Positions 30,435 to 45,890 of a stretch of 64,000 bases of DNA are shown one piece after another. Under the pieces are notes generated by a model, which was not told the origin of the DNA, did not search any database, and saw nothing but the letters and a program-made list of their open reading frames with translations. Position 1 is the first letter of the stretch. Every line of letters starts with the position of its first letter. Source of the stretch: Amycolatopsis endophytica (GTDB taxonomy: Bacteria > Actinomycetota > Actinomycetes > Mycobacteriales > Pseudonocardiaceae); contig NZ_JACCFK010000002.1 of NCBI RefSeq assembly GCF_013410405.1, forward strand, positions 1,736,001 to 1,800,000, written 5' to 3'. Position numbers and translations under genes: made by a program.

Positions 30435-30447
30435 GATCCCTCTCCTT

Positions 30448-31620: not shown

Positions 31621-32750
31621 CACACCAACTCCAGAATCGTCGCGTTGGCCTGCCCGCCGCCCTCGCACATGGTCTGCAGGCCGTAGCGGATACCGGCGTC
31701 GCGCATCTGGTGCACGAGCGTGGTCATGATCCGCGCGCCGCTGCCGCCGAGCGGGTGACCGAGCGCGATCGCGCCGCCGTGCGGGTTGAGCGTCTTGGCG
31801 TCGGCACCGGTCTCGGCGAGCCAGGCCATCGGCACCGGCGCGAACGCCTCGTTGACCTCGAACACGCCGATGTCCGACACCGCCAGGCCGCTGCGCGTCA
31901 ACGCCTTGTGAGTCGCCGGGATGGGCGCGGTGAGCATGATGACCGGATCGTCACCAGCGAGCACGGCGGTGTGCACGCGCGCGATCGGCCGCAGGCTCAG
32001 CTGGGCGGCCTTCTCGCTGGTCGTCATCAGCAACGCGGCCGCGCCGTCGCTGATCTGCGAGCTGTTGCCCGCCGTGATGACACCGTCCTCGCGGAACGCG
32101 GGCTTGAGCTTGGCCAGCTTCTCCAGCGAGCCACCGCGGCGCACACCCTCGTCCGCGGTCACGTCCCCGATCGGCAGGAGCTGATCGTCGAAGGCGCCGG
32201 AATCCTGCGCCGCGGCGGCCTTTTCGTGCGAGGCCAGCGAGAACTCGTCGACCTGCTGACGGGAGAAGCCCCACCGCTCGACGATCATCTCCGCGCCGAT
32301 GCCCTGGTTGGGCCGCACGCCGCCGTAGCGGGCCAGCACCTGCTCGCCGAGCGGATTCGTGCCCTGAGCGGAAAAGCCCATCGGCACGCGGCTCATCGAC
32401 TCGACGCCACCGGCCACCACGACGTCATAGTGACCCGCGATCAACCCGGCGGCCGCGAAGTGCACGCTCTGCTGACTACTGCCGCACTGCCGGTCGACGG
32501 TCACGCCGGTGACGCTCTCCGGCCAGCCGGCCGCGAGCACGGCGTTGCGGCCGATGTCGCCGGTCTGCTCGCCCGCCTGGCTCACGCAGCCCCACACGAC
32601 GTCGTCGATCTCGGCCGGGTCGATCCCGGCCCGTTCGGCGAGGCCGCGCAGCACGTGCGCCGACAGGTCCACCGGGTGCACGCCGGACAGGCCGCCGTCA
32701 CGTTTGCCGACGGGCGTCCGCACCGCTTCCACGATCACCGCGTCTCGCAC
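31620..32750 (-). CDS. Acetyl-CoA acetyltransferase (thiolase)
   Basis: 376 residues from GTG 32750 (SD AGGAGGAG). Nucleophilic Cys in VDRQCGSSQQSVHFAAAGLI, His in VNEAFAPVPMAW, and CxG-type Cys in NPHGGAIALGHPLGGSGARI and MCEGGGQANA. Ends beta-oxidation by thiolytic cleavage, giving acetyl- or propionyl-CoA. Overlaps the ligase gene by 16 bp and the dehydrogenase by 3. Confidence 0.92.
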   Translation of the reverse strand: MRDAVIVEAVRTPVGKRDGGLSGVHPVDLSAHVLRGLAERAGIDPAEIDDVVWGCVSQAGEQTGDIGRNAVLAAGWPESVTGVTVDRQCGSSQQSVHFAAAGLIAGHYDVVVAGGVESMSRVPMGFSAQGTNPLGEQVLARYGGVRPNQGIGAEMIVERWGFSRQQVDEFSLASHEKAAAAQDSGAFDDQLLPIGDVTADEGVRRGGSLEKLAKLKPAFREDGVITAGNSSQISDGAAALLMTTSEKAAQLSLRPIARVHTAVLAGDDPVIMLTAPIPATHKALTRSGLAVSDIGVFEVNEAFAPVPMAWLAETGADAKTLNPHGGAIALGHPLGGSGARIMTTLVHQMRDAGIRYGLQTMCEGGGQANATILELV

Positions 32751-34309
32751 GGCTCCTCCTTCTGCGTCGCTGCGGCGGGGGCCGCGTACCGTTCCTTGAG
32801 CCGCCGCTTGACCAGTTTTCCGGTTGGGGTGCGGGGCAGTTCTTCGGCGAAATCCACGCTGCGGGGCGCCTTGTAGCGCGCGATCCGCCCGCGGACGTAG
32901 GCCAGCAGTTCGGCTTCGAGCGCCGGGCCGGGCGGGATGCCGGGCGCGGGCTGGACGACGGCCTTGACAACCTCGCCCATCTCGTCGTCCGGCACGCCGA
33001 TCACGCCGACGTCGAACACCGCGGGGTGCAGGGCGAGCACGTCCTCGATCTCCTGCGGGTAGATGTTCACCCCGCCAGAGATGATCATGAATGCCTTGCG
33101 GTCGGTCAGGTAGAGGAAGCCGTCCTCGTCGAGGTAGCCGACGTCGCCCGTGGTCGTCCACGTCTCGTGCGCGGGGTGCTGCGCCTCGCGCGTCCTGACC
33201 TCGTCGCCGTGGTAGGTGAACGGGACCTCGTCGCGTTCGAAGTAGACGGTACCGACCTCACCGGCAGGCAGCAGTTCGCCCGCGTCGTCGCAGATCCTGG
33301 CGACGCCGACCACCGCGCGGCCCACCGAACCGGGCTTGGCCAGCCACTGCTCGCTGTCGATGAAGGTCATCCCGGCGCCCTCGGTGGAGGCGTAGTACTC
33401 GGACAGGACCGGGCCCCACCAGTCGATCATCGCGCGTTTGACCTCGACCGGGCACGGCGCGGCGGCGTGCACCGCGACGCGATGGCCGGTCAGGTCGTAG
33501 CGGGCACGGACGTCGCCGGGCAGCTTGAGCATCCGCACGAACATCGTCGGCACCCACTGGCTGTGCGTGACGCGGTAGGTCTCGATGGCGCGCAGCGCGG
33601 CCTCCGCGTCGAAGCGCTCCATCATCACCACCGTGCCACCCAGGCGGTGCACGACCGCGCCGAACCGCAGCGGCGCCGCGTGGTAGACCGGCGCCGGGGA
33701 CAGGTAGGTCATGTCCGGGCCGAAGCCGTACAGGTGCCGCAGCACCGGGGTGAGCACGTCGCCCGGCTCGTCGATCTGCCGGTCGGGCAGGTCGACCTTG
33801 ATGCCCTTGGGACGGCCGGTGGTGCCGGACGAGTACAGCATGTCCGCGCCCGAGGGCTGGTCGGCGGGACGCTCGGATGAGCCGGTGGCCAGGAACTCGT
33901 CGTAGCCCGCGTAGCCGCCGGTCCCGCCGCCGTAGACGAGCTTGACCGGCACGTCCGGGAGCAGTGCGGCGACCGCGGCCGCCAACGGGCCGAGTGCGGC
34001 CGAGACGACCAGGGCCTTCGCGCCGCTGTCGGTGACGATGTAGGCGACCTCGGCGGGCGCGAGATGGCTGTTGACAGCGGCCACGTAGCGGCCTGAGCGC
34101 ATCGCGGCCCAGTAGACTTCGTAGGCGCGCGCGTTGTTGTCGCTCAGCACCGCGACGGTGTCACCGCGGCCGAGACCGGCGCTGGTCAGGGCGTCGGCCA
34201 GGCGCGCGGAACGCTCGTCGAGCTCGCCGTAGGTCAGCCGCTCCCCGGAGCCCGCCATGATCACCGCGGCCTTGTCCGGATCGGCGTCGGCGTGGGTACC
34301 CGGGTACAT
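32735..34309 (-). CDS. Acyl-CoA synthetase (AMP-forming, FadD type)
   Basis: 524 residues from ATG 34309 (GAGGAG upstream). ANL-superfamily motifs: LYSSGTTGRPKGIKVDLP near residue 175, YYASTEGAGMTFID, TTGDVGYLDEDGFLYLTDR, and the C-terminal catalytic Lys in LPRTPTGKLVKRRLKER. Activates a carboxylic acid to its CoA ester, the entry step of the operon. The substrate is unknown; the insertion KVDLPDRQIDEPGDVLTPVL after the P-loop is typical of FadD enzymes for bulky acids, as far as recalled. Confidence 0.9.
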   Translation of the reverse strand: MYPGTHADADPDKAAVIMAGSGERLTYGELDERSARLADALTSAGLGRGDTVAVLSDNNARAYEVYWAAMRSGRYVAAVNSHLAPAEVAYIVTDSGAKALVVSAALGPLAAAVAALLPDVPVKLVYGGGTGGYAGYDEFLATGSSERPADQPSGADMLYSSGTTGRPKGIKVDLPDRQIDEPGDVLTPVLRHLYGFGPDMTYLSPAPVYHAAPLRFGAVVHRLGGTVVMMERFDAEAALRAIETYRVTHSQWVPTMFVRMLKLPGDVRARYDLTGHRVAVHAAAPCPVEVKRAMIDWWGPVLSEYYASTEGAGMTFIDSEQWLAKPGSVGRAVVGVARICDDAGELLPAGEVGTVYFERDEVPFTYHGDEVRTREAQHPAHETWTTTGDVGYLDEDGFLYLTDRKAFMIISGGVNIYPQEIEDVLALHPAVFDVGVIGVPDDEMGEVVKAVVQPAPGIPPGPALEAELLAYVRGRIARYKAPRSVDFAEELPRTPTGKLVKRRLKERYAAPAAATQKEEPCETR

Positions 34310-34390: not shown

Positions 34391-35032
34391 ATGGTGAGCC
34401 CCGTGGTGACCGAAACCCGGAACCGGCAGGACCGCGCGGCAGGCACGCGGACGTTGATCCTCGACGCGGCCGTGGCGTGCCTGGTCGAGCTGGGCTACTC
34501 CGGCGCGTCCACGCTGGCCATCCAGGCCAAGGCCGGAGTGTCCCGCGGGCGCCTCCTGCACCACTTCCCCTCGCGCGACGAGCTGCTGGTCGCGGCGACG
34601 CAGCACCTGACGAAGACGCGGCTGACGCAGATCGAGGAGCAGGTCGCCGAGCAGCTCGCGGGCGAACCGGAGGGGCCGCGGCGGGTCGACCGGTGCATCG
34701 AGCTGCTGTGGACGACCTTCCACGAGCCGGTGTTCTGGGCGGCGGTCGAATTGTGGACCGCGGCGCGGACCAATCCGGCACTGGCCGCGGCGCTGCGACC
34801 GGAGGAGCGGGCGCTGCGGGAGGCGATCCGCCGGGTCGGCGAGCGGATCTGGGGACCGGCGGTGGTCGCGCACCCGAACTACCCCGAGCTGGGCGAAGTG
34901 CTGTTCACCAGCATGCGCGGCGCGGCGCTGCCCTACGCCTTCGAGAGCCGCCGCCGTCCGGCGAACGACCCGCACCTCGCGTTGTGGAAGTCCATCGCGC
35001 ACCGGCTGCTCTTCGCGACCGGCCAGTGCTGA
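34391..35032 (+). CDS. TetR family transcriptional regulator of the acyl-CoA operon
   Basis: 213 residues from ATG 34391 (in-frame GTGs at 34394, 34403 and 34406 are alternatives). HTH: TRTLILDAAVACLVELGYSG, TLAIQAKAGVSRGRLLHHFP. The C-terminal ligand domain is helical, with LWTTFHEPVFWAAVELWTAA. Divergent from the six-gene fadD-type operon with a perfect palindrome between, so probably its repressor, released by an acyl-CoA. Confidence 0.86.
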   Translation: MVSPVVTETRNRQDRAAGTRTLILDAAVACLVELGYSGASTLAIQAKAGVSRGRLLHHFPSRDELLVAATQHLTKTRLTQIEEQVAEQLAGEPEGPRRVDRCIELLWTTFHEPVFWAAVELWTAARTNPALAAALRPEERALREAIRRVGERIWGPAVVAHPNYPELGEVLFTSMRGAALPYAFESRRRPANDPHLALWKSIAHRLLFATGQC

Positions 35033-35041
35033 CTCTTTCGT

Positions 35042-35283
35042 AGCCGCTACGCGGGTGTTTGCGCTGCGCGCGGATGAAAGCGTCCCGGAGGGGCCAACAC
35101 GCCGCCCGGAAGGGCCAACACGCCAGCGCGAGCGGCAAACACGGCGCGGACGCACCGTGTTTGCCGCTCCGGGCACCGTGTTTGCCGCTCCGGGCACCGT
35201 GTTTGCCGCTCCGGGCACCGTGTTTGCCGCTCCGGGCGCCGAGCCGGCGCCCAAGCCGGGCAGCGCGGGATCCCGCGTAGCGG
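35042..35283. repeat. Composite 21-bp repeat element between convergent genes
   Basis: Begins 9 bp after the tetR stop and ends 1 bp before the HMG-CoA lyase-like stop. Terminal inverted repeats CCGCTACGCGGG (35044-35055) and CCCGCGTAGCGG (35272-35283) bracket it. Inside are two diverged and one good forward unit (GGAGGGGCCAACACG, GGAAGGGCCAACACG, GAGCGGCAAACACGG), then four perfect tandem inverted units of 21 bp starting CACCGTGTTTGCCGCTCC (35153-35236). Forward and inverted units make a perfect 15-bp hairpin (35130-35144 with 35155-35169). A related copy is at 52211-52507. Confidence 0.85.
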
Positions 35284-35284
35284 T

Positions 35285-36223
35285 CTACGAACCAGTGAGG
35301 GCCTTCACGACGCGTGAAGGGCTGGGCCGCCCCAGACGCTCCGCCATCCAGACGCTCGTGGAGACCAGCGAGTCCAGGTCCGCCCCGTGCTCGACACCCA
35401 CACCGTCGAGCATCCACACCAGGTCCTCGGTCGCCAGGTTCCCGGTGGCCGCCTTCGCGTAGGGGCATCCGCCGAGACCGCCCGCCGAGGAGTCCACAGT
35501 GGTCACCCCACACCTCAGCGCCGCCAGCGTGTTCGACAGCGCCTGTCCGTACGTGTCGTGGAAATGCACGGCCAGCGAGTCGACCTCCGGGAACGCCGCG
35601 AGCACCGCCTCGACGTGACCGGGCGTCGCCACCCCGATCGTGTCTCCCAGGGACAACTGGAAGCATCCCATGTCCAGCAGGCGCCGACCCGCCGCGACCA
35701 CCTGGTCGACAGGCACGGCTCCCTCCCAAGGGTCGCCGAAGCACATCGACAAGTATCCGCGCACCTGGAGGCCCTCGTGCCGGGCCCGGCGCACCACCGG
35801 CTCGAACATCGCGAACTGCTCGTCGAACGAACGGTTCAGGTTCTTGCGCGCGAACGTCTCCGTGGCGCTGCCGAAGATGGCGATCGACTCGACCCCGAGC
35901 GCCAGCGCCCTGTCCAGGCCCCGCTCGTTCGGCACCAGCACCGGGTACCGCACGCCCTCGCGTCGCTCCAGCTTCGCCAGCAGGTCGTCGGCGTCCGCGA
36001 GCTGCGGGACCCACTTCGGGTGCACGAAGCTCGTCGCTTCGAGCGTGCCGAGCCCGGCCGCCGCCAACCGGTCCAGGAACTCCAGCTTCGTGTCCAGCCC
36101 GACGATCGCCTGTTCGTTCTGCAACCCGTCACGCGCCCCGACCTCCCAGATCGTGACCCGCTCCGGCAGCTCCGCACGGGACGCCTCCCGCTGCGGAAGC
36201 CCCAGCTCACGCACACTCACCAT
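35285..36223 (-). CDS. Hydroxymethylglutaryl-CoA lyase family protein
   Basis: 312 residues. TIM-barrel aldol lyase: VTIWEVGARDGLQNEQAIV with the metal/substrate Asp-Gly-Leu-Gln-Asn-Glu, ATSFVHPKWVPQLADAD, HFHDTYGQALSNTLAAL with metal His, and the Cys signature GGLGGCPYAKAATGNLATED. Classical role: HMG-CoA to acetoacetate and acetyl-CoA in leucine breakdown. It lies 9 bp after the FAD/Fe-S dehydrogenase in a co-directional run from the lactonase, so a related aldol cleavage in that pathway is possible. Confidence 0.9.
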   Translation of the reverse strand: MVSVRELGLPQREASRAELPERVTIWEVGARDGLQNEQAIVGLDTKLEFLDRLAAAGLGTLEATSFVHPKWVPQLADADDLLAKLERREGVRYPVLVPNERGLDRALALGVESIAIFGSATETFARKNLNRSFDEQFAMFEPVVRRARHEGLQVRGYLSMCFGDPWEGAVPVDQVVAAGRRLLDMGCFQLSLGDTIGVATPGHVEAVLAAFPEVDSLAVHFHDTYGQALSNTLAALRCGVTTVDSSAGGLGGCPYAKAATGNLATEDLVWMLDGVGVEHGADLDSLVSTSVWMAERLGRPSPSRVVKALTGS

Positions 36224-36232
36224 GCCCCCACG

Positions 36233-39064
36233 TTAACGCTGACTAACGCCGTCGTCCAGCGCGCGGGCCAGCACCTGCGCGAGGTGCAGCGCCTCGCGGC
36301 CGGTGAGGTCGTCGATCTGGGTGCGGCAGCTGAACCCGTCCGCGAGGACCATCGTGTCCGGGGAAGCCGCGTTCACCTCGGGCACCAGCACCCGCGCGGC
36401 CGCGCCGACCGACACCTCGTAGTGGCCCTTCTCGACACCGAAGTTCCCGGCCAGCCCGCAGCAGCCCGAGTCGAGCGTCCGGTTCGCCACGCCCACCCGG
36501 CGCAGCAGGCGCTCCTCGGCCGCGTTGCCCACCACCGCGTGCTGGTGGCAGTGCTGCTGCGTGATGGCCGTGGCCTCGACCCGCGGGAACTCCACGTCGG
36601 GTGCGTAGCGTTCCAGGAACTCGGCCAGCGTGAACGCCTGCGAGGGCAGGCCGTGCAGCTCCGCCTCGTCCAGCAGCTCCCGCGAGTCGTGCCGGAAGAC
36701 GGCGAGGCAGCTCGGCTCCAGGCCGACCACGGGAGTCCCGGCTTCCAGTTCCGGCCGCAGCACCCGCAACGTCCGCCGCAGCACCTTCCGCGCCACGCCC
36801 AGCTGCCCGGTCGAGATCCAGGTCAGCCCGCAGCACACCGACGACGACGGCAGCACCACGTCGAACCCGGCGTGCTCCAGCACCCGCACCGCGTCGTGAC
36901 CGACCTCGGGCGACAGGAAGTTCGTGAACGTGTCCGGCCACAGCACCACCCGCGGACGGCCCTGCTCCCGCCCGCGGAACCCGCGCCGGAACGTCCGCGG
37001 CGCGAACCGCGGCAGCGACCGCTCCGGCGTGATCCCACCCGCCTTCTTCACCAGCCCGGACAGCCGCCCGCCCAGCACGCGGTTCGCCAGCCGCGGCGCC
37101 GCCGAAGCCAGCCGCGACAGCACCGGCAGGAACCCGAGCGTGTAGTGGCTCGCCGGGCGCAGCCGTCCCCGGTAGTGCTGGTGCAGGAACTCCGCCTTGT
37201 ACGAGGCCATGTCCACATTGACCGGGCAGTCCGACAGGCATCCCTTGCACGCCAGGCACAGGTCCAGCGCCTCCAGCACTTCGGAAGACCGCCAGCCGTC
37301 GGTGATCGTCTCGCCACGCATCATCTCGAACAGCAGGTGCGACCGGCCGCGCGTGGAGTGCTCCTCGCGACCGGTGACCATGTAGCTCGGGCACATCACG
37401 CCGGACGACTTGTCGACGCAGGCCCCGACGCCGACGCACCGCCGGGTCGCCGTCGCCAGGCTGCCGCCGTCGTGCGGGTACTTCAAGGTGAGTGGCAGCG
37501 ACCGCACCGGCCCGTCGAACCGCAGGTCCGCGTCGAGCGCGCGCGGGTGCACGAGGTTGCCCGGGTTCAGCAGGTCGCCGGGGTCCCAGATCGCCTTGAA
37601 CCGCTCGAACAACGCGAGGATCTCCGGCGGGTACATGCGGGACAACAGCTCGGCACGCGCCTGCCCGTCGCCGTGCTCGCCGGACAGCGATCCGCCGTGC
37701 CGCACCACCAGGTCGGCCGCGTCCTCCATGAACGCGCGGAACTGCCGCCGCCCTTCCTCGCTGGTCAGCCCGAAGTTGATCCGGACGTGCACACAACCCT
37801 CGCCGAAGTGTCCATACGGGACACCCGTCAAACCGTACTTCCCGAGCAGGGCGCGGAAGTCACGCAGGTACACGCCAAGGTTCGCGGGCGGGACGGCGGA
37901 GTCCTCCCAGCCCGGCCACGCCTCGGAGCCGTCCGCCATGCGGGTCACGATGCCGGCCGCGGCCTCCCGCACCGACCACAGCACGCGCTGATCGGCCGGA
38001 CGGGTCTCGACGACGGTCGCCGCGCCGGTCTCTCGCGTGAGCACGTCCGCGACGTCGGCGGCCCGCGCCGCCGCGTCGGCGGCGTCTGCTCCCCCGACCT
38101 CGACGAACAGCCAGCCGCGCCCCTCGGGCAGCAGGTCGACCGCCGGATGGGACCGCCGCGTCAGCAGCGAGTCGATCAGATCGCGCCCCATGCCCTCGAC
38201 GGTCAGCGGCTTGAGCGGCAGCACCGAGGGCACGGCGTCGGCGGCCGCGATGTCGTCGGCGTACCCCGCGACGACCAGCGCGCGGGCCGCGGGCGCGGGC
38301 ACCAGCCGCACGGTGATCTCGGTCAGCAGCACGCAGGTGCCCTCGGTGCCCACGAGCGCGCGGACCAGGTTCGTGCCGTTCTCGGGCAGCAACTGCTCCA
38401 GCGCGTACCCCGACACGCGTCGCGGGATCGTCGGGAAAGCCGTGCGCAGCAACGCCAGGTTGTCCAGCGCGAGCTGCTTCGACGCCGCGACCCGCGGGTC
38501 CTCGGGCAGCTCCGGCCCGATCACCAGCCGCGCACCGTCCGCGGTCAGCACGTCCAGCGCGATCACGTTGTCCGCGGTCCGGCCCCACGCCACGGAATGG
38601 GATCCGCACGCGTCGTTGCCGACCATGCCGCCGATCGTGCAGCGGCTGTGCGTCGACGGGTCCGGCCCGAACGTCAGGCCGTGTGGCGCGGCCGCCGCGC
38701 GCAGCGCGTCCAGCACCACACCGGGCTGCACGCGCGCGGTCCGCGCCTGCGGGTCGATCTCCAGCACCCGGTCGAGGTGCCTGCTGTAGTCGACCACGAC
38801 ACCCCGCCCGAGCGCCTGCCCGCCGATGCTGGTGCCGGAACCCCGTGCGGTGATCGGGATTCCGTACTCCCGGCACAGCCGGACCGTCGTCTCCAGGTCC
38901 TCCACAGTGGACGGGAAGACGACGGCCACCGGCACGTGCCGGTAGTTCGACGCGTCCATGCTGTAGGTGGCGCGCGCCGTCGTGCCGGATTCCACCTCAC
39001 CCGTGAGCGCGTGGCCCAGTTCCCCGAGGAACCGGGCCACGCGCTCGTCGGTAGCCACGGTCAT
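36233..39064 (-). CDS. FAD-linked/Fe-S 2-hydroxyacid dehydrogenase (YdiJ-like, possible D-2-hydroxyglutarate dehydrogenase)
   Basis: 943 residues fusing three modules. The N-terminal VAO/PCMH FAD domain has PITARGSGTSIGGQALGRGV near residue 70 and DPSTHSRCTIGGMVGNDACG. A ferredoxin-like module has CVGVGACVDKSSGVMCPSY and CLACKGCLSDCPVNVDM. C-terminal CCG domains have SSVCCGLTWIS and LDSGCCGLAGNFG. E. coli YdiJ, of the same architecture, oxidises D-2-hydroxyglutarate. Start overlaps the FmdB-like stop by ATGA. Its partner, a transhydrogenase that makes D-2-hydroxyglutarate, lies one gene upstream. D-lactate is the main alternative substrate. Confidence 0.85.
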   Translation of the reverse strand: MTVATDERVARFLGELGHALTGEVESGTTARATYSMDASNYRHVPVAVVFPSTVEDLETTVRLCREYGIPITARGSGTSIGGQALGRGVVVDYSRHLDRVLEIDPQARTARVQPGVVLDALRAAAAPHGLTFGPDPSTHSRCTIGGMVGNDACGSHSVAWGRTADNVIALDVLTADGARLVIGPELPEDPRVAASKQLALDNLALLRTAFPTIPRRVSGYALEQLLPENGTNLVRALVGTEGTCVLLTEITVRLVPAPAARALVVAGYADDIAAADAVPSVLPLKPLTVEGMGRDLIDSLLTRRSHPAVDLLPEGRGWLFVEVGGADAADAAARAADVADVLTRETGAATVVETRPADQRVLWSVREAAAGIVTRMADGSEAWPGWEDSAVPPANLGVYLRDFRALLGKYGLTGVPYGHFGEGCVHVRINFGLTSEEGRRQFRAFMEDAADLVVRHGGSLSGEHGDGQARAELLSRMYPPEILALFERFKAIWDPGDLLNPGNLVHPRALDADLRFDGPVRSLPLTLKYPHDGGSLATATRRCVGVGACVDKSSGVMCPSYMVTGREEHSTRGRSHLLFEMMRGETITDGWRSSEVLEALDLCLACKGCLSDCPVNVDMASYKAEFLHQHYRGRLRPASHYTLGFLPVLSRLASAAPRLANRVLGGRLSGLVKKAGGITPERSLPRFAPRTFRRGFRGREQGRPRVVLWPDTFTNFLSPEVGHDAVRVLEHAGFDVVLPSSSVCCGLTWISTGQLGVARKVLRRTLRVLRPELEAGTPVVGLEPSCLAVFRHDSRELLDEAELHGLPSQAFTLAEFLERYAPDVEFPRVEATAITQQHCHQHAVVGNAAEERLLRRVGVANRTLDSGCCGLAGNFGVEKGHYEVSVGAAARVLVPEVNAASPDTMVLADGFSCRTQIDDLTGREALHLAQVLARALDDGVSQR

Positions 39065-39414
39065 GAAACCGGTTCACCGGCCCGCAGCGGCGCGGCGGCG
39101 AACCGGCCCTCGTGGGCGAGCACCGGACGGCGGTCGCCGCCCAGCTCGGGGTATTTCTGCTCCAGTTTCTCGCGCCGGGTCATCTGCCGGTGCCAGTGCC
39201 GCACCGTTTCCCGGTCACCGTCACCCGTGCCGCGCCAGCTCTTCGGCGCGTCGTCCCGGCTGGGACCGGCCGAAGCGACCCCGCCCAGCCGCACCGCGGG
39301 TGGCAGCCGGTGGGGCACGGAACCGCACTCGCAGTCCGGGGCCGGACTGGCGGACGACGGCACGAGCGCCTCGAACCGGTTCCCGCAGTCACACGCGTAG
39401 TCGTAGATCGGCAT
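39061..39414 (-). CDS. FmdB-like zinc-ribbon protein
   Basis: 117 residues from ATG 39414. Starts MPIYDYACDCGNRFEALVP with a CxC pair and later CECG, the FmdB zinc-ribbon pattern with the first knuckle altered to CDC. The rest is polar and basic (MTRREKLEQKYPEL). FmdB-like proteins accompany several alcohol and formamide-degrading enzymes, often as presumed regulators or activity factors. 4 bp from the transhydrogenase and overlapping the dehydrogenase. Confidence 0.75.
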   Translation of the reverse strand: MPIYDYACDCGNRFEALVPSSASPAPDCECGSVPHRLPPAVRLGGVASAGPSRDDAPKSWRGTGDGDRETVRHWHRQMTRREKLEQKYPELGGDRRPVLAHEGRFAAAPLRAGEPVS

Positions 39415-39418
39415 CGGC

Positions 39419-40696
39419 TCACCAGTTCTCGATCGATTCGGCGAAGATCGCCGACAGGTCCTCGCCCCGCACCGGCCGCGGGGCCGTCGCCAGCAGCCGC
39501 TCCTGCTTGAGCGTCCCGTCGACCAGTCCGGAGATGTCGCTCTCGTCGTAGCCGACACCGCCGATCCCGTTGGGGGTGCCGATGTCGCGCATCAACGAGG
39601 ACAACACGAACGGCAGCTGGTCGACGGGGTCGTGCTGCTCGGGCGCGTGCGGGTCGAGGATCCGCGCGGCCCGCAGGTGCTTGTCCGGGTTGGTCGGGAA
39701 GGTGAACCGGAACGCCGCCGGCGCGGTCAGCGACACCGATTCACCGTGCGGGACCAGCGCCTCGTCCTGCGGGTAGTTCTTCGGCCGGTAGTCCTTGACG
39801 CGCCCGGCGATCGGGTACGCGCAGGCGTGCGGGATGTGCACGCCCGCGTTGCCGAAGCCCATCCCGGCGAACGTGGCGGCCAGCATCATGTCCGACCGCG
39901 CGGCCAGGTCACCGCCGTTGAGCACGGCCTTGCGGAACGAACGGGCCAGCAGGGTCAGCGCCTGCTCGGTCCAGGCGTCGGAGATCGGGTTCGACCCGCA
40001 GTAGGCGACACGGGTCTCCGGACGGTGCCGGGCGAAGGAGTCGAACGGCTTGGCCGTGTAGGACTCCAGCGCGTGGCACAGCACGTCCATGCCGCTGGCC
40101 GCGGTCACCTCGGGCGGCATGCTCAGCGTGAGCAGCGGGTCGACGACCGCCATCGACGGCCGCAGCCGCGGGTGGCTGATACCGGCCTTCACCTTGAGGT
40201 CGAGGAAGTCCATGATGCACACCGGCGTCGTCTCCGACCCCGTGCCCGCCGTGGTCGGCACCGCGACCAGCGGCTTGAGCGGCCCGTCCGGCGCCTTGCC
40301 CTGGCCGATCGGCTTGTTGACGTAGTCGTAGAGGTCGGCCGGGTAGGTGGTCATCAGGTTGATGGCCTTGGCGGTGTCGATCGAGGAGCCGCCGCCGACC
40401 GCGATGAAGCCGTCCCACTCCGACTCCTTCGCGAAGTCGACCGCGGCCTGGATGCTGACGTCGGTCGGTTCGACGTGCACCTGGTCGTAGACCTCGACGG
40501 TCAGCCCGCCCGCCTTGGCGGCGTCGGCGACGCGCTGCGGCACGCCCGTGGAGGCGATGCCGGGGTCGGTGACGATCAGGACCCGCTGCGCGCCCATCTG
40601 GGCGAGATCCCAGCCGATCTCGTCGACGGCGCCGGGCCCGAACTTGAGCGGGGTCGCACCCCAGGTGAAGACGGTTTCGTTCAGGTACTCGGTCAC
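39419..40696 (-). CDS. Iron-containing alcohol dehydrogenase, hydroxyacid-oxoacid transhydrogenase (ADHFE1/HOT) type
   Basis: 425 residues. Closely follows the HOT pattern: FIAVGGGSSIDTAKAINL (97-114), PLVAVPTTAGTGSETTPVCI (142-161), SGMDVLCHALESYT with Asp204 and His208, YCGSNPISDAW, GFGNAGVHIPHACAYPI with His290, LVPHGESV with His317, and GTLKQERLLATAP. HOT oxidises 4-hydroxybutyrate to succinic semialdehyde while reducing 2-oxoglutarate to D-2-hydroxyglutarate, without free NAD. Between a BlcC-like lactonase and a YdiJ-like dehydrogenase, this activity fits well. An NAD(P)-linked alcohol dehydrogenase is the alternative. Confidence 0.82.
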   Translation of the reverse strand: MTEYLNETVFTWGATPLKFGPGAVDEIGWDLAQMGAQRVLIVTDPGIASTGVPQRVADAAKAGGLTVEVYDQVHVEPTDVSIQAAVDFAKESEWDGFIAVGGGSSIDTAKAINLMTTYPADLYDYVNKPIGQGKAPDGPLKPLVAVPTTAGTGSETTPVCIMDFLDLKVKAGISHPRLRPSMAVVDPLLTLSMPPEVTAASGMDVLCHALESYTAKPFDSFARHRPETRVAYCGSNPISDAWTEQALTLLARSFRKAVLNGGDLAARSDMMLAATFAGMGFGNAGVHIPHACAYPIAGRVKDYRPKNYPQDEALVPHGESVSLTAPAAFRFTFPTNPDKHLRAARILDPHAPEQHDPVDQLPFVLSSLMRDIGTPNGIGGVGYDESDISGLVDGTLKQERLLATAPRPVRGEDLSAIFAESIENW

Positions 40697-40708
40697 GGAA
40701 GTCCCCTT

Positions 40709-41515
40709 TCAGCCGAAGTGCCCGTCGGGCGCGAACGGAAGCGTGGCGGCCTGCGCCGGATCGTGGCCGAAGATGACCTCGGCGTTCGTTTCCTCGGCGA
40801 TGCGGCGCAGTTTCTCCACCGACTCCAGCCAGCGCACGCTGTCCCACACGATCGCGGCGCCGACGGCGGGCGGGCCCCAGCTCTCGTCCAGGTAGACGGC
40901 GTCGGAGGTGAAGATCTTGGTGCCCGCACCGGGCAGGTCCACCCGCAGGGACATGGTCCCCCAGGTGTGTCCGGGTGTCGCGATGACGCTGACGCCGGGC
41001 GCGATCTCGGCGTCGCCGGAGACGAGTTCGTAGTCGATGCCCTCGTAGTCGACCTTGAGGTGCGCGCCCTTGAACGGCCCGTCGATGCCGAGCGCGCCGT
41101 CGTGCTCGTCGGAGTTGACGACGATCCGGGTCTTGCCGTTGTCGAACAGCTTCGCGTTGGCGGCATGGTCGAAGTGCAGGTGGGACAGCACGAGCACGTC
41201 GATGTCGTCCGGGGTCAGCTCCAGGCTCGCGAGCGAGTCCTGCAGGTAGCTGGTGCCCTCCTGGACGGGGAAGAACTCCTGCAGACCGGTGGGCGCCCAG
41301 CGGGTCTCCCAGTCCTGCGGGACGCCGGTGTCCCAGAGGATGCGCCCGTCCGGATGCTCGATGAGCACCGCATGGGTGGGACAGGTCGTCCACACCGCCT
41401 CTTTGCGGGTGTCCGAACGGTCGGTGATGGTCGCGCCCGGCTTCAGCAGCAGCCAGGTCTGGTCGCATTCCATGGTTCCGGTTCTGAGCAGGTGGACTTT
41501 GCTCGGTGCCGTCAT
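40709..41515 (-). CDS. MBL-fold lactonase, AttM/BlcC-like (gamma-butyrolactone or AHL lactonase)
   Basis: 268 residues from ATG 41515 (SD GGAGG). Metallo-beta-lactamase zinc site: [26 protein letters not shown] and FGHDPAQ. The C-terminal [20 protein letters not shown] aligns by eye with AttM/BlcC (SVQKLRTYAEKHDATVVTGH). BlcC opens gamma-butyrolactone to 4-hydroxybutyrate, and relatives open acyl-homoserine lactones. First gene of the operon, 13 bp before the transhydrogenase; a 12-bp palindrome lies 47 bp upstream. Confidence 0.82.
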
Positions 41516-41562
41516 CTGCGCCTCCTTGCGCCTCGTGATCCGGCCGAGGCACAGGGTGGCAT

Positions 41563-41574
41563 GTAGCATGCTAC
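41563..41574. promoter_or_regulatory. Perfect 12-bp palindrome, probable GntR operator before the lactonase operon
   Basis: GTAGCATGCTAC, immediately after the gntR stop (41575) and 47 bp before the lactonase ATG. A compact, AT-rich dyad fits GntR/FCD operators. No copy is seen in the 61-bp gap between gntR and the aldehyde oxidoreductase genes, so control of that side is unproven. Confidence 0.6.
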
Positions 41575-42288
41575 TCAGTCAACGCCGGGGTACGCGGTCC
41601 ACTCCAAGGAGACCGGCGGGAGCGCGTCTCCGCTGGCGGCGGCCTCCTGGCTGATCAGCAGGCGGCCGGTGTGCAGCAGGTGGGCACGCATCGATTCCGC
41701 AGCCGCCGCGGCCTCGCCCGCCTCGATGCGGGCGAAGATCTCCTCGTGCTCGGCAAGGATGTCGGCCAGCGTGCGGGACGTGTCGACGGTCGAGCTCCCC
41801 CGCAGCAGCACCATGTCACGCAGCGAGTCGATGTAGCGGGCGAGCCGGACGTTGCCGGAGGCGGAGTTGATCACTTCGTGGAAGCGCCGGTCGGCGGCCA
41901 TGAAGGTGGCTTCATCGTGCCTGTCCGCCGCCACGCGCATGGCCTTGAGCTGGGCATCCAGGTCCCTGACCCACGCCGCGGTCCGTTGCGTCACCGCGCG
42001 GTAGGTCGCCGGAACCTCCAGCAGCAGCCGGATCGCGAAGACCTCCTCCAGATCGTGCAGCGACGTCTGGAGGATCCGCACCCCGCGGTTGCGCTCGAAG
42101 CGCACCATGCCACGCTCGGCCAGCTGGATCAGCGCCTCGCGCACCGGCGTCCGGGACACGCCGAGACGCTCGGCGAGGTCGTGCACCGAGTAGAGACTGC
42201 CCGCGACCAGTTCACCGTTGACGATGGCGGTCTTGAGCTCGTCGAGGAGCTTCCCGGCGAGGTTGGCGTCGTTCCCGATCTGCCGCAT
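41575..42288 (-). CDS. GntR family regulator, FadR/FCD subfamily
   Basis: 237 residues from ATG 42288. N-terminal GntR winged HTH ([50 protein letters not shown]). All-helical FCD domain with the metal-site pattern: Asp and His in [14 protein letters not shown] and [20 protein letters not shown]. Divergent from the molybdenum aldehyde oxidoreductase and directly upstream of the lactonase operon, so it likely responds to a small carboxylate such as 4-hydroxybutyrate or succinic semialdehyde. Effector inferred. Confidence 0.85.
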
Positions 42289-42349
42289 CCGCGCATTTTC
42301 CCACGCCGCACGCGGTTTCACGCCGCAGGCGCCGGGTACGCCCTCCGGC

Positions 42350-42853
42350 ATGGACGCGGAGATCACCTTGCGCGTCGACGGCGCCGCCCGCCGCCTGACG
42401 CTGGACACCCGCACCACGCTCCTGGACGCCCTGCGTGAACGGCTCGGGGTGACCAGTCCGAAGAAGGGCTGTGACCACGGTCAGTGCGGCGCGTGCACGG
42501 TGCTGATCGGCGGCAGGCGGGTGCTGTCCTGCCTGTCGCTCGCGATCGCCCAGGACGGGGCCGAGGTCACCACCGCCGAAGGGCTCGCGGACGACGGCGA
42601 GCTGCACCCCGTCCAGCGGGCGTTCCTCGAACACGACGGATTCCAGTGCGGGTACTGCACGCCGGGCCAGATCTGCTCCGCCGTCGGGATGCTCGACGAG
42701 GCCGGGCAGGGCTGGCCGAGCCACGTCACCCCGGACATGAGCACGCGTCCCGCCCTCACCCGCGCCGAGATCGCCGAGCGGATGAGCGGCAACCTGTGCC
42801 GGTGCGCCGCCTACGACGGGATCGTGGGCGCGATCGAGGAGGCCGCGCGGTGA
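42350..42853 (+). CDS. Aldehyde/xanthine dehydrogenase small subunit, 2x[2Fe-2S] (PaoA/YagT-like)
   Basis: 167 residues from ATG 42350. Plant-type ferredoxin cluster KGCDHGQCGACTVLIGG with a further Cys, then the helical second cluster FQCGYCTPGQICS and GNLCRCAAYDGI. Lacks the long Tat leader of E. coli YagT, so the complex may be cytoplasmic. Overlaps the FAD subunit by GTGA. Confidence 0.92.
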   Translation: MDAEITLRVDGAARRLTLDTRTTLLDALRERLGVTSPKKGCDHGQCGACTVLIGGRRVLSCLSLAIAQDGAEVTTAEGLADDGELHPVQRAFLEHDGFQCGYCTPGQICSAVGMLDEAGQGWPSHVTPDMSTRPALTRAEIAERMSGNLCRCAAYDGIVGAIEEAAR

Positions 42854-43821
42854 AACCGTTCGCCTACGACTCCCCCGCCGACGCCGCCACCGCGGTCCGG
42901 ACCGTCGCCGGGGACCCGTCGGCCATGTACCTGGGCGGCGGCACGAACCTGGTCGACCACCTCAAACTCGGCGTCGCCCGGCCGGGCCGGATCGTTGACG
43001 TCACCCACCTGACCTCGACCGAAATCGTCGAACGGGACGGCGGGCTGTCGATCGGCGCCGGGGTCCGCAACAGCGAGCTGGCCGCCGATCCGCGGGTGCG
43101 GTCCCGCTACCCGGTGCTGGCTTCGGCGTTGCTGGCCGGCGCGTCCGGGCAGCTGCGCAACATGGCCACCACCGGCGGGAACCCGTTGCAGCGCACGCGG
43201 TGTGTGTACTTCCAGGACGTCACCACAGCGTGCAACAAGCGTGAGCCGGGTTCGGGCTGCTCGGCGATCGGCGGGTACACGCGCTACCACGCGATCCTCG
43301 GCGCGTCTTCGGAGTGCGTGGCCACGCACCCGTCGGACATGGCGGTCGCGCTGGCCGCGCTGGACGCCTCGGTGCGGGTGCTCGGACCGGACGGCGAGCG
43401 CACGATCCCGTTCACCGAACTGCACCGGCTGCCCGGCGACTCGCCGGAGAAGGACACGGTGCTGGAGCACGGCGACCTGATCACCGCGATCGACTTGCCC
43501 GCGCCTCCCGGAGACCGCCAGCGGTACCGCAAGGTCCGCGACCGCGCCTCCTACGCTTTCGCGCTCGTGTCGGTGGCGGCGGTGCTGTCCGTGGACGACG
43601 GCAGGATCCGGGACGCGCGCCTCGCGTTCGGCGGGGTGGCGCACAAGCCGTGGCGGGCGTGGCAGGCCGAAGACACGCTACGCGATGCTCATGTTTCGGA
43701 GGACGTGTTCCGCGCCGCAGCCGAGGCCGAGCTCGCGCAGGCGGAACCGTTGCCCGGCAACGAGTTCAAGGTTCCCCTGCTGACCCGCACTCTCGTCGCC
43801 GTCCTCCGGGAGCTGTCATGA
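42850..43821 (+). CDS. Aldehyde oxidoreductase FAD-binding medium subunit with [4Fe-4S]-type insert (PaoB/YagS-like)
   Basis: 323 residues. FAD loops MYLGGGTNLVDHLKLGV and ATTGGNPLQRTRC. The insert RCVYFQDVTTACNKREPGSG through GCSAIGG and SSECVATHPSDMAVAL carries the Cys set that holds an extra [4Fe-4S] cluster in PaoABC, unlike ordinary xanthine dehydrogenases. Overlaps both neighbours by 4 bp. It passes electrons from molybdenum and Fe-S centres to the final acceptor. Confidence 0.9.
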   Translation: MKPFAYDSPADAATAVRTVAGDPSAMYLGGGTNLVDHLKLGVARPGRIVDVTHLTSTEIVERDGGLSIGAGVRNSELAADPRVRSRYPVLASALLAGASGQLRNMATTGGNPLQRTRCVYFQDVTTACNKREPGSGCSAIGGYTRYHAILGASSECVATHPSDMAVALAALDASVRVLGPDGERTIPFTELHRLPGDSPEKDTVLEHGDLITAIDLPAPPGDRQRYRKVRDRASYAFALVSVAAVLSVDDGRIRDARLAFGGVAHKPWRAWQAEDTLRDAHVSEDVFRAAAEAELAQAEPLPGNEFKVPLLTRTLVAVLRELS

Positions 43822-45890
43822 CCGCGATCGGCAAACCGCTGGTGCGGCGCGATGGTGCGCGCAAGGTCACCGGGACCGCCACCTACGCCTACGAAACACC
43901 ACTCGACGCGCCCCTGTTCTGCCATCCCGTGCAGGCCACGGTGGCGCGGGGCCGGATCACCGCGATCCACACCGCCGACGCGGAGATGCTCGACGGGGTG
44001 CTGGACGTGATCACCTACCGCACCGCCGAACGGCTCGCGTCCACCGAGGACGCCGAGCTGGCGGCGCTGCAGGACCGGGAGGTCGCCTTCCGCGGGCAGC
44101 TGGTCGGGCTGGTGCTCGCCGAGTCGTCGGAGAGCGCGCGGCACGGCGCGGAACTGGTGACCGTGGACTATCACGAGCACGCGCACGACACCGAGCTGTC
44201 CGCCGACCGTGACGATCTCTACCGGCCCGAGAAGGTCAACCCCTCGTTTCCGACGGACACCGGCACCGGGGATGTGGACGCCGCCATGGCCGCGACGGAT
44301 GTGACGGTCGAGCAGACCTACCGCACGGCGATGTACCACAACAACCCGATGGAGCCGCACGCCACGACGGCGTGGTGGGACAACGACTCCTTGACGCTGT
44401 GGGACTCGACGCAGGGCGTGCACCCGTCACGCACGACGGTCGCGAAAGTGTTCGGGCTGCCCGAAGAGCGGGTGCGCGTGGTGTGCCCGTTCGTCGGCGG
44501 CGGGTTCGGCTCCAAGGGACTGCCGCACGTGAACGTCGTGGCGGCCGCGATGGCCGCGCGAGCCCATCCGGGACGGCCGGTGAAGCTCGCGCTGACGCGG
44601 CAGCAGATGTTTTCGCTGGCCGGGTACCGGACGCCGACGATCCAGAAGATGCGGCTGGGCGCGGACTCCGACGGGCGGTTGGCGGCGATCAGCCTGGACG
44701 TGGTCGAGCAGACGTCGCGGATCAAGGAGTTCGCGGAACAGACCGCGTTGCCCGCGCGCATGATGTACGCCGCGCCGAACCGCCGCACCACGCACCGGCT
44801 GGCGGCGCTGGACGTGCCGGTGCCGTCGTGGATGCGCGCGCCCGGCGAGTGCCCCGGCATGTTCGGGCCCGAGGTGGCGATGGACGAACTGGCCTGCGAG
44901 CTGGGCATCGACCCGATCGAACTGCGGGTGCGCAACGAGCCGGAGACGGACCCGGATTCGGGAAATCCGTTCTCCAGCCGTCACCTGGTGGAGTGCCTGC
45001 GCGAGGGTGCGCGCCGGTTCGGCTGGGCGGGGCGCGATCCGCGGCCCGGCGTCCGGCTGGAGGACGGGTGGCTGGTCGGCACCGGCGTCGCCGCGTCGGT
45101 GTATCCGGCGCGGACCAACCCCGGGTCCACCGCGAACGTGCGGTTCGACGGCGGCCGGTACGTCGTCGAGATCGGCGCGGCCGACCTGGGCACCGGCGCG
45201 TGGACCGTGCTGCCGCAGATCGCCGCGGACGCGCTCGGTGTGCCCGTCGAGGAGGTCGACGTCCGGATCGGCGACACCGACTACCCGAAGGCGACGGTGG
45301 CAGGCGGGTCCACCGGAACGGCGACGTGGGGTTCGGCGATCGTCGAGGCGGCGCGGACGTTCCGCGACAAGTTCGGCCGCGACCCCGGCGACGGCGACGA
45401 GGCCGACGCGACGACCGGGGAGAACCCGGCGAGCGAGCGGTACGCGATGTACGCGTTCGGCGCCCAGTTCACCGAGGCGCGGGTGCACGCCGACACCGGC
45501 GAGATCCGGGTGCCCCGGCTGCTCGGGGTGTTCGCCGCGGGCCGCATCATCAACCCGCGGACGGCGCGGTCGCAGTTCCTCGGCGGCATGACGATGGGCC
45601 TGTCGATGGCGTTGCACGAGGACAGCGTGTGGGATCCGCGGTTCGGGCAGGTGGTGAACCACGATCTGGCCGAATACCACGTCTCGGTGAACGCCGACGT
45701 GGACGACGTGCAGGCCCACTGGCTGGACGAGCAGGACGACCAGGTGAACCCGCTGGGCAGCAAGGGAATCGGCGAGATCGGGATCGTGGGAACCGCGGCG
45801 TCGGTGGTGAACGCGGTGTTCCACGCGACCGGGGCACGGATCCGCGACCTGCCCGTCACCCTGGACAAGGTGCTGCCGTTCCTGCCCTGA
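43818..45890 (+). CDS. Aldehyde oxidoreductase molybdenum-binding large subunit (PaoC/YagR-like)
   Basis: 690 residues. Xanthine-oxidase fold with PLVRRDGARKVTGTATYAYE at the start, VVCPFVGGGFGSKGLPHVNV (molybdopterin binding), SWMRAPGECPGMFGPE, and the active-site Glu in GSKGIGEIGIVGTAASVVNA. About 40 residues shorter than typical YagR. Oxidises aldehydes to acids with water as oxygen source. In this context succinic semialdehyde is the attractive substrate, though aromatic aldehydes are the known PaoABC preference. Confidence 0.92.
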   Translation: MTAIGKPLVRRDGARKVTGTATYAYETPLDAPLFCHPVQATVARGRITAIHTADAEMLDGVLDVITYRTAERLASTEDAELAALQDREVAFRGQLVGLVLAESSESARHGAELVTVDYHEHAHDTELSADRDDLYRPEKVNPSFPTDTGTGDVDAAMAATDVTVEQTYRTAMYHNNPMEPHATTAWWDNDSLTLWDSTQGVHPSRTTVAKVFGLPEERVRVVCPFVGGGFGSKGLPHVNVVAAAMAARAHPGRPVKLALTRQQMFSLAGYRTPTIQKMRLGADSDGRLAAISLDVVEQTSRIKEFAEQTALPARMMYAAPNRRTTHRLAALDVPVPSWMRAPGECPGMFGPEVAMDELACELGIDPIELRVRNEPETDPDSGNPFSSRHLVECLREGARRFGWAGRDPRPGVRLEDGWLVGTGVAASVYPARTNPGSTANVRFDGGRYVVEIGAADLGTGAWTVLPQIAADALGVPVEEVDVRIGDTDYPKATVAGGSTGTATWGSAIVEAARTFRDKFGRDPGDGDEADATTGENPASERYAMYAFGAQFTEARVHADTGEIRVPRLLGVFAAGRIINPRTARSQFLGGMTMGLSMALHEDSVWDPRFGQVVNHDLAEYHVSVNADVDDVQAHWLDEQDDQVNPLGSKGIGEIGIVGTAASVVNAVFHATGARIRDLPVTLDKVLPFLP

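What the first reader, a model, noticed from the sequence alone, without database searches (positions are those of the whole stretch)
35285..45890. Possible gamma-butyrolactone/4-hydroxybutyrate pathway: lactonase, HOT transhydrogenase, YdiJ-like dehydrogenase, Mo aldehyde oxidase
Seen: one minus-strand run encodes an AttM/BlcC-like MBL lactonase, an ADHFE1-like transhydrogenase, an FmdB-like ribbon and a YdiJ-like FAD/Fe-S dehydrogenase with gaps of 12 bp or less. A GntR gene lies between it and a divergent PaoABC-like operon. Known: BlcC opens gamma-butyrolactone; HOT converts 4-hydroxybutyrate plus 2-oxoglutarate to succinic semialdehyde plus D-2-hydroxyglutarate; YdiJ oxidises D-2-hydroxyglutarate. 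Inference: the set recycles 2-oxoglutarate and sends electrons to the membrane, a redox-neutral alternative to Agrobacterium blcABC. In an actinomycete it could also quench gamma-butyrolactone signals.
Basis: partly seen in the sequence, partly recalled or inferred. Interest (0 to 1): 0.82.

Follow-up and report, generated by a model that had tools for sequence, protein, structure and literature searches.

The report
Actinomycete operon for GHB breakdown
A soil actinomycete carries a small operon that looks able to open gamma-butyrolactone and burn the resulting 4-hydroxybutyrate (GHB) with the same unusual enzyme pair that animals use, and its regulator and DNA switch site recur on a plasmid of a tetrahydrofuran-degrading bacterium, which makes the role testable.

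Summary
The genes are as described, 35285-45890. The working unit is smaller: a GntR regulator, a 19-bp putative operator (41556-41574), then lactonase, HOT, FmdB and FAD/FeS dehydrogenase. HOT has both insertions that define the animal GHB transhydrogenase subfamily. It lies within 20 kb of the FAD/FeS gene in 26 of 80 HOT-bearing genomes. In Rubrobacteraceae-type genomes and on a Deinococcus plasmid HOT lies beside an AttM/BlcC lactonase. On pYYL1.1 of a tetrahydrofuran degrader, HOT and the FAD/FeS gene lie near a monooxygenase cluster, with a 63%-identical regulator and two perfect operator copies. Not upheld: the window's lactonase is not AttM/BlcC, the dehydrogenase misses the YdiJ cut-off, and PaoABC and an unmentioned HMG-CoA lyase are lineage-local neighbours. 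New: lactonase and FmdB travel together (15 of 15 loci against 1 of 65). Best reading: NAD-independent 4-hydroxybutyrate oxidation by a 2-oxoglutarate/D-2-hydroxyglutarate shuttle. No activity has been measured.

The parts
41575..42288 (-). GntR-family regulator with FCD domain (from the ATG at 42288; the longest frame begins at 42417)
   Evidence: Pfam GntR and FCD; 63% identical over 159 aa to the GntR of pYYL1.1
41556..41574 (-). 19-bp inverted repeat GTAGCATGCTACATGCCAC, putative GntR operator, directly after the gntR stop and 40 bp before the lactonase start
   Evidence: Unique in the genome at 0-1 mismatch (at 2 mismatches the reversed control pattern has as many hits); inner 12-mer exact in the window and 9 further Amycolatopsis genomes; perfect copies of the consensus GTGGCATGNNNCATGCCAC on pYYL1.1. 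Binding is inferred
40709..41515 (-). Metallo-beta-lactamase-fold lactonase, AhlD-like
   Evidence: Pfam Lactamase_B, HLHFDH motif, best solved relative GcL lactonase, clade with AhlD-type proteins
39419..40696 (-). HOT: hydroxyacid-oxoacid transhydrogenase-subfamily iron alcohol dehydrogenase
   Evidence: Pfam Fe-ADH; both HOT insertions
39061..39414 (-). FmdB-family zinc ribbon protein
   Evidence: TIGR02605 above cut-off; co-occurs with the lactonase
36233..39064 (-). FAD + Fe-S dehydrogenase, likely D-2-hydroxyglutarate dehydrogenase
   Evidence: Pfam domains; catalytic residues aligned to human D-2-HGDH; linked to HOT in 26 of 80 HOT-bearing genomes
35285..36223 (-). HMG-CoA lyase, 9 bp downstream; probably a local neighbour
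   Evidence: NF004283 above cut-off; 0 of 80 named HOT loci
42350..42853 (+). PaoA-like 2Fe-2S subunit of a divergent molybdenum aldehyde oxidoreductase
42850..43821 (+). PaoB-like FAD subunit
43818..45890 (+). PaoC-like molybdenum subunit

Best explanation
Lactonase, HOT, FmdB and FAD/FeS dehydrogenase form one GntR-controlled catabolic operon for 4-hydroxybutyrate and its lactone. Inferred steps: the lactonase opens gamma-butyrolactone (or a close lactone) to 4-hydroxybutyrate; HOT, with bound NAD, passes the hydride of 4-hydroxybutyrate to 2-oxoglutarate, giving succinic semialdehyde and D-2-hydroxyglutarate; the FAD/FeS dehydrogenase oxidises D-2-hydroxyglutarate back to 2-oxoglutarate and hands the electrons to an unidentified, probably membrane, acceptor; an aldehyde dehydrogenase encoded elsewhere makes succinate. 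FmdB serves the lactonase in an unknown way. GntR sits on the operator at 41556-41574 and is released by a pathway metabolite. Shown here: genes, subfamily features, conserved linkage, operator conservation, and a related regulator with the same operator beside a monooxygenase cluster of a tetrahydrofuran degrader. Inferred: every activity, the inducer, regulator binding and co-transcription.
For: HOT insertions present, absent in BlcB (definition from PMC5125639 section 14). HOT-FAD/FeS linkage: 26 of 80 genomes within 20 kb, 11 within 500 bp, 25 of 27 pairs on one strand. Catalytic residues kept and an Arg, shared with YdiJ, where D-lactate and glycolate enzymes have hydrophobic residues. 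AttM-type lactonase within 6 kb of HOT in 11 of 14 f33 regions, two of which were scored and pass the AttM cut-off, and next to HOT in Deinococcus. Succinic semialdehyde dehydrogenase above its cut-off near HOT-FAD/FeS on the PH-06 plasmid. pYYL1.1 of a tetrahydrofuran degrader: monooxygenase, aldehyde dehydrogenase, GntR, HOT, FAD/FeS and two perfect operator copies. Rubrobacter offered gamma-butyrolactone as sole carbon source made only P3HB (PMC8146576 passages; the authors do not show the data).
Against: No biochemistry. 43 of 96 HOT rows in the tree have none of these partners nearby, so HOT also works elsewhere. Lys401, essential in human D-2-HGDH, is Trp here (YdiJ lacks it too). The lactonase is nearest AhlD-type enzymes, named for acyl homoserine lactones. 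No aldehyde dehydrogenase of the genome passes the SSADH cut-off (best 586 of 646 bits, 29 relatives). The genome has no relative of the pYYL1.1 monooxygenase at 1e-60, so the source of the lactone is unknown. Two of the nine lactonase relatives found in HOT-bearing genomes are not near HOT.
Confidence: 0.72

Rival explanations
1. The HOT-FAD/FeS pair serves another hydroxyacid, such as 3-hydroxypropionate or 3-hydroxybutyrate, and the lactonase with FmdB is a separate accessory.
For: C. elegans HPHD-1, a HOT ortholog, is reported to use 3-hydroxypropionate with recycling by DHGD-1 (PMC10096224 passages). HOT-FAD/FeS occurs without a lactonase in 22 of 80 named loci. PHA synthase-type genes lie in 10 of the 20 loci.
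Against: Two different lactonase types sit beside HOT; succinic semialdehyde dehydrogenase near HOT; tetrahydrofuran context, whose proposed path runs through 4-hydroxybutyrate (PMC7464125 passages).
Confidence: 0.14
2. Quorum quenching: the lactonase destroys acyl homoserine lactones or gamma-butyrolactone signals, and the neighbours are incidental or use a by-product.
For: AhlD-type clade; GcL lactonases are the best solved relatives.
Against: The operator and GntR cover HOT and FAD/FeS on pYYL1.1 without a lactonase match; lactonase and FmdB recur with HOT in 15 named loci.
Confidence: 0.07
3. Mevalonolactone-type route: lactone to hydroxyacid, aldehyde and acid, ending at the HMG-CoA lyase.
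For: The HMG-CoA lyase is above its cut-off and directly follows the FAD/FeS gene here and, 91 bp away, in L165.
Against: No HMG-CoA lyase within 6 kb of HOT in 80 named loci; in five other Amycolatopsis genomes it is 3-8 kb beyond the FAD/FeS gene; no CoA ligase or transferase in the unit.
Confidence: 0.04

Closest known systems
Agrobacterium blcABC (attKLM) operon with BlcR
   Same: Lactonase plus iron ADH for gamma-butyrolactone to 4-hydroxybutyrate to succinic semialdehyde (PMC5924552 passages; gene order seen)
   Different: BlcB lacks the HOT insertions; lactonase 29% identical; IclR regulator; SSADH in the operon; no FmdB and no FAD/FeS gene
Animal HOT (ADHFE1, HPHD-1) with D-2-hydroxyglutarate dehydrogenase
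   Same: Same enzyme pair: HOT makes D-2-hydroxyglutarate, a flavoprotein recycles it (PMC10096224 and PMC5125639)
   Different: Here an operon with lactonase, FmdB and regulator; the dehydrogenase is an FAD/FeS fusion
YdiJ D-2-hydroxyglutarate dehydrogenase of E. coli
   Same: FAD + Fe-S fusion; shared catalytic residues and Arg
   Different: 29% identity, far below the YdiJ cut-off
DhdR, GntR-family D-2-hydroxyglutarate sensor of Achromobacter
   Same: GntR regulator beside a D-2-hydroxyglutarate dehydrogenase; palindromic operator (PMC8651671 passages)
   Different: Operator GTTATCAGATAAC there, GTGGCATGNNNCATGCCAC inferred here; no HOT named in the passages read
HOT-FAD/FeS segment of plasmid pYYL1.1, Rhodococcus ruber YYL
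   Same: GntR 63%, HOT 63%, FAD/FeS 54% identical; same operator
   Different: Next to a monooxygenase cluster; no match to the lactonase or FmdB; an IS element separates regulator and HOT

Membership tests
HOT subfamily of iron ADHs (cd08190, ADHFE1) | Two insertions of 19 and 13 residues absent in other iron ADHs | tested here: met
   16 and 13 residues at the corresponding places, both absent in BlcB (definition)
HOT subfamily of iron ADHs (cd08190, ADHFE1) | Iron ADH fold and metal ligands | tested here: met
   Pfam Fe-ADH; D204, H208, H290, H317 invariant (that these are the ligands is recalled)
HOT subfamily of iron ADHs (cd08190, ADHFE1) | Bound cofactor, 2-oxoglutarate as hydride acceptor | not testable with these tools
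   Needs enzyme assay
AttM/BlcC lactonase | NCBIfam AttM cut-off (390 bits) | tested here: not met
   94 bits; 29% identity to pAt AttM
AttM/BlcC lactonase | HxHxDH metal motif of the superfamily | tested here: met
   HLHFDH
AhlD-type lactonase | Clade with AhlD | tested here: inconclusive
   61% to a protein that a source names AhlD; clade support 99 in a quick tree with long branches; no tested AhlD sequence was at hand
YdiJ D-2-hydroxyglutarate dehydrogenase | NCBIfam YdiJ cut-off (1350 bits) | tested here: not met
   456 bits; 29% identity
D-2-hydroxyglutarate dehydrogenases | Residues for metal, C1-carboxyl and C2-hydroxyl (human Arg386, His434, His441, Glu475, His476) | tested here: met
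   Aligned residues identical (list)
D-2-hydroxyglutarate dehydrogenases | C5-carboxyl residues Thr390, Lys401, Tyr432, Asn443 | tested here: inconclusive
   Ala, Trp, Tyr, Arg here; YdiJ also lacks Lys and has the Arg
blcABC operon | IclR regulator, SSADH, NAD-type iron ADH, AttM | tested here: not met
   GntR, no SSADH, HOT-type ADH, other lactonase
PaoABC | NCBIfam cut-offs of PaoA and PaoC | tested here: not met
   PaoA 266 of 322, PaoC 666 of 1180 bits (the PaoC query was an over-long frame)
HMG-CoA lyase | NCBIfam NF004283 cut-off | tested here: met
   377 of 246 bits
DhdR regulators | Operator GTTATCAGATAAC | tested here: not met
   The inferred operator differs

The most novel reading that the evidence does not exclude
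Bacteria run a dedicated, operon-encoded 2-oxoglutarate/D-2-hydroxyglutarate hydride shuttle that oxidises 4-hydroxybutyrate without free NAD+, the same logic as the animal GHB pathway; a GntR with operator GTGGCATGNNNCATGCCAC controls it and is shared with tetrahydrofuran degradation, and an FmdB zinc ribbon is an obligate partner of the lactonase.
Probability: 0.5. Interest if true: 0.72.

Novelty: new variant of a known kind. Interest (0 to 1): 0.62.

Why it matters
[quoted passage not shown] A defined operon, an operator that can be tested by gel shift and a clear candidate substrate make that question testable in ordinary soil actinomycetes. If true, D-2-hydroxyglutarate, known as an oncometabolite, is an everyday hydride carrier in bacterial catabolism; the enzymes would matter for breakdown of tetrahydrofuran and gamma-butyrolactone; and the FmdB zinc ribbon gains a concrete partner to test.

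Tried and rejected
Mevalonolactone route (prompted by the HMG-CoA lyase): dropped, because the lyase is not near HOT elsewhere. Downstream FadD4/thiolase/acyl-CoA dehydrogenase/hydratase genes as part of the run: dropped, since a divergent TetR gene and a repeat-rich gap separate them. PaoABC as part of the unit: not excluded, but there is no operator copy in its gap, and it is near HOT in 1 of 80 named loci. The structure model of HOT reached mean pLDDT 70 and was not used. A promoter scan found no sigma-70 site; the TTGAC element before the operator is by eye.

Controls that cut against the operator: the 12-mer first used is at chance level when 2 mismatches are allowed (1 found, 0.64 expected). 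The 19-mer at 2 mismatches gives 2 forward and 1 reverse hits in the genome while its reversed control gives 3 and 3. At 3 mismatches Markov copies of the 80 named loci give 7 hits. I therefore lean only on hits with 0-1 mismatch.

Papers: HOT with operon gave 3 papers; six tetrahydrofuran and transhydrogenase terms gave 8; two searches were broader. In the listings and passages seen none describes a bacterial HOT operon, but subscription journals are not held.

Limits of the counts: the simple gene caller missed some HOT genes, so counts come from six-frame searches or genome searches. Some named loci end less than 6 kb from HOT. Searches used 80 of 83 HOT-positive genomes; three with partial HOT matches were dropped. 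The tree used the 80 named loci, the window and 15 of the 19 regions L141-L159 (without L147, L149, L151, L152), and none of L161-L169. In the lactonase tree long frames were cut to 285 residues and L055, L107 and AttM are long branches. The AttM cut-off was scored for 2 f33 proteins; the rest were called by similarity to one of them. PhaC was confirmed on two proteins; the presumed PhaE had no NCBIfam match.


Full report
What is there. The window lies in a 7.2-Mb genome of an Amycolatopsis close to A. thermalba and A. thermophila (HOT 96% and 93% identical). The described genes are intact and in the stated order and spacing. Downstream, a repeat-rich gap (35044-35280) and a TetR gene on the other strand mark off a separate beta-oxidation operon.

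HOT belongs to its subfamily by sequence. [quoted passage not shown] Against Agrobacterium BlcB, the iron ADH of the blc operon, P0004 has 16- and 13-residue insertions at the corresponding places; BlcB has neither and is 34% identical. P0004 is below the cut-off of each of the 17 NCBIfam models it matches, including the C. necator 4-hydroxybutyrate dehydrogenase (201 of 500 bits).

The FAD/FeS protein has YdiJ architecture, but is 29% identical to E. coli YdiJ and scores 456 of 1350 bits on the YdiJ model. Aligned to human D-2-HGDH (residues from PMC7801405 passages) it keeps Arg386, Tyr432, His434, His441, Glu475 and His476. Thr390 is Ala, Lys401 is Trp and Asn443 is Arg. The same Arg stands in YdiJ, which is reported strictly specific for D-2-hydroxyglutarate (PMC9504171 passages), in the 27 other HOT-locus proteins that the pattern could read, and in the 9 f33 proteins it could not read. 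D-lactate and glycolate enzymes have hydrophobic residues there. This favours a dicarboxylate but does not prove it.

Linkage. HOT is in 49 of 150 genomes drawn from the order (1e-60) and 37 of 346 drawn from the phylum (1e-80). Of 80 HOT-bearing genomes, 68 hold a FAD/FeS relative at 1e-90; in 26 it lies within 20 kb of HOT, in 11 within 500 bp, and 25 of 27 pairs share a strand. About one pair would be expected by chance (my estimate from genome sizes). In 80 named HOT loci, within 6 kb of HOT: FAD/FeS 27, FmdB 16, window-type lactonase 15, GntR 11, AttM-type 2, PaoC 1, HMG-CoA lyase 0. Against over-reading: 43 of 96 HOT rows in the tree have none of the partners.

Lactonase and FmdB go together. 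15 of 15 named loci with the window-type lactonase have FmdB, against 1 of 65 without (Fisher p 2e-15); that one (L055) has a fragmentary lactonase frame (82 bits). On the HOT tree the two traits change together in about 10 of 12 independent contrasts and never oppositely (sign test median p 0.002). In L162 (G490) the lactonase is a short remnant and FmdB is gone, while HOT and FAD/FeS remain. Lactonase and FAD/FeS are independent of each other (5 of 15 against 22 of 65, p 1.0). HOT therefore has two separable partners: lactonase + FmdB, and the dehydrogenase.

Other lineages point to 4-hydroxybutyrate. In f33 genomes (Rubrobacteraceae, judged by clustering with two named loci), 11 of the 14 regions L141-L154 have an AttM-type lactonase within 6 kb of HOT, two have another lactonase and one has none. 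The two AttM-type proteins scored pass the AttM cut-off (414 and 421 against 390); one was compared with AttM of A. tumefaciens pAt and is 58.6% identical. PHA synthase-type genes lie in 10 of the 20 loci (class III and class I PhaC confirmed on one protein each). L148 reads aldehyde dehydrogenase, SDR, HOT, AttM-type, FAD/FeS on one strand (SDR by eye). Rubrobacter offered gamma-butyrolactone as sole carbon source formed only P3HB, data not shown by the authors (PMC8146576 passages). On Deinococcus wulumuqiensis pDrdI HOT is followed by attM after 15 bp. On the plasmid of Mycobacterium dioxanotrophicus PH-06 HOT overlaps FAD/FeS by 4 bp, and a succinic semialdehyde dehydrogenase above its cut-off lies 4 kb away on the other strand. 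On a R. pseudokoreensis plasmid an annotated succinic semialdehyde dehydrogenase, an MFS transporter and HOT are neighbours, without the FAD/FeS gene beside HOT.

The strongest single link is pYYL1.1 of Rhodococcus ruber YYL, a tetrahydrofuran degrader (PMC7464125 passages; the paper gives the proposed path through gamma-butyrolactone and 4-hydroxybutyrate to succinate). A 25-kb stretch holds a multicomponent monooxygenase (Pfam), an aldehyde dehydrogenase, a GntR 63% identical over 159 aa, HOT (63%) and FAD/FeS (54%). That this monooxygenase is the tetrahydrofuran one is inferred from the strain and recalled, not tested. The window's own genome has no relative of it at 1e-60.

Operator. A 19-bp inverted repeat, GTAGCATGCTACATGCCAC, lies at 41556-41574, directly after the gntR stop and 40 bp before the lactonase start. 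Its inner 12-mer occurs exactly once in the window region and in each of L161-L169 and once in the whole genome. The 19-mer is unique in the genome at 0-1 mismatch; at 2 mismatches it is no commoner than its control. Perfect copies of GTGGCATGNNNCATGCCAC stand before the lactonase in three Pseudonocardia loci with a linked GntR (L039, L042, L044); L072 (Planotetraspora, GntR divergent) has a 3-mismatch form. The nine named lactonase loci without a linked GntR have no such copy before the lactonase. pYYL1.1 has two perfect copies, one upstream of the aldehyde dehydrogenase/monooxygenase side and one after its gntR; an IS1380 lies between the latter and HOT. None lies in the GntR-PaoA gap.

Inducer. 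DhdR, another GntR regulator, senses D-2-hydroxyglutarate beside its dehydrogenase and uses a different operator (PMC8651671 passages). D-2-hydroxyglutarate is therefore one candidate inducer here, beside 4-hydroxybutyrate and succinic semialdehyde.

Lactonase identity. It is not AttM (94 of 390 bits; 29%). Its clade, support 99 in a quick tree, holds AhlD-type proteins of Arthrobacter, Rhodococcus and others, whose context I did not see. GcL lactonases are the best solved relatives. With a 94%-identical relative as query and a cut of 1e-55, 1 of 346 phylum genomes, the window's own, has this type, so 15 of 80 HOT loci is a real association. In HOT-bearing genomes 9 of 80 have a relative at 1e-25; in 7 it lies within 5 kb of HOT and in 2 it does not.

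HMG-CoA lyase and PaoABC. The lyase is 9 bp from the FAD/FeS gene here, 91 bp in L165, 3-8 kb in L161-L164 and L166, and outside the stretch read in L167-L169; its best relatives occur in all 19 Amycolatopsis genomes searched. PaoABC lies beyond the GntR in 8 of 9 relatives; the ninth contig ends first. Both look like stable local neighbours, not parts of the unit, though the lyase may well be read through here.

Verdict. A new variant of a known kind: gamma-butyrolactone/4-hydroxybutyrate catabolism in which an NAD-type dehydrogenase is replaced by a transhydrogenase and a flavin recycler. The pathway is well supported by context and untested by chemistry.

Noticed in passing
window 27734-34309 and 34391-35032: Separate operon of FadD4-like ligase, thiolase, two acyl-CoA dehydrogenases and enoyl-CoA hydratase frames, divergent from a TetR gene.
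   Followed up: partly
window, about 35150-35235: Four near-identical direct repeats of GCCCGGAGCGGCAAACACGGT-type units between the HMG-CoA lyase and the TetR gene (read by eye).
   Followed up: no
L162 (G490): The lactonase is a short remnant and FmdB is missing, while GntR, operator, HOT and FAD/FeS remain.
   Followed up: partly
L052, L053, L057 (Actinomadura): HOT lies next to genes that look by eye like tryptophan 2,3-dioxygenase and kynurenine 3-monooxygenase, a possible other role of HOT.
   Followed up: no
L050, L068, L069 (Amycolatopsis), L156: HOT is next to a small thioesterase-like gene (by eye).
   Followed up: no
Nocardioidaceae loci such as L061, L085, L086, L101: HOT and FAD/FeS, often overlapping by 4 bp, sit near large RNA polymerase-like and ribosomal-type genes (by eye), with no lactonase.
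   Followed up: no
G000:C2:1328748-1331648: The genome has a second FAD/FeS relative, 51% identical, away from HOT.
   Followed up: no
plasmids of Natrinema and Haloferax (hits H31-H33, H35): Genes annotated as hydroxyacid-oxoacid transhydrogenase, 36-39% identical, occur in haloarchaea.
   Followed up: no
L059, L099, L155: MFS transporters that look by eye like metabolite:H+ symporters lie near HOT; an annotated MFS gene also precedes HOT in L177 and L179.
   Followed up: no
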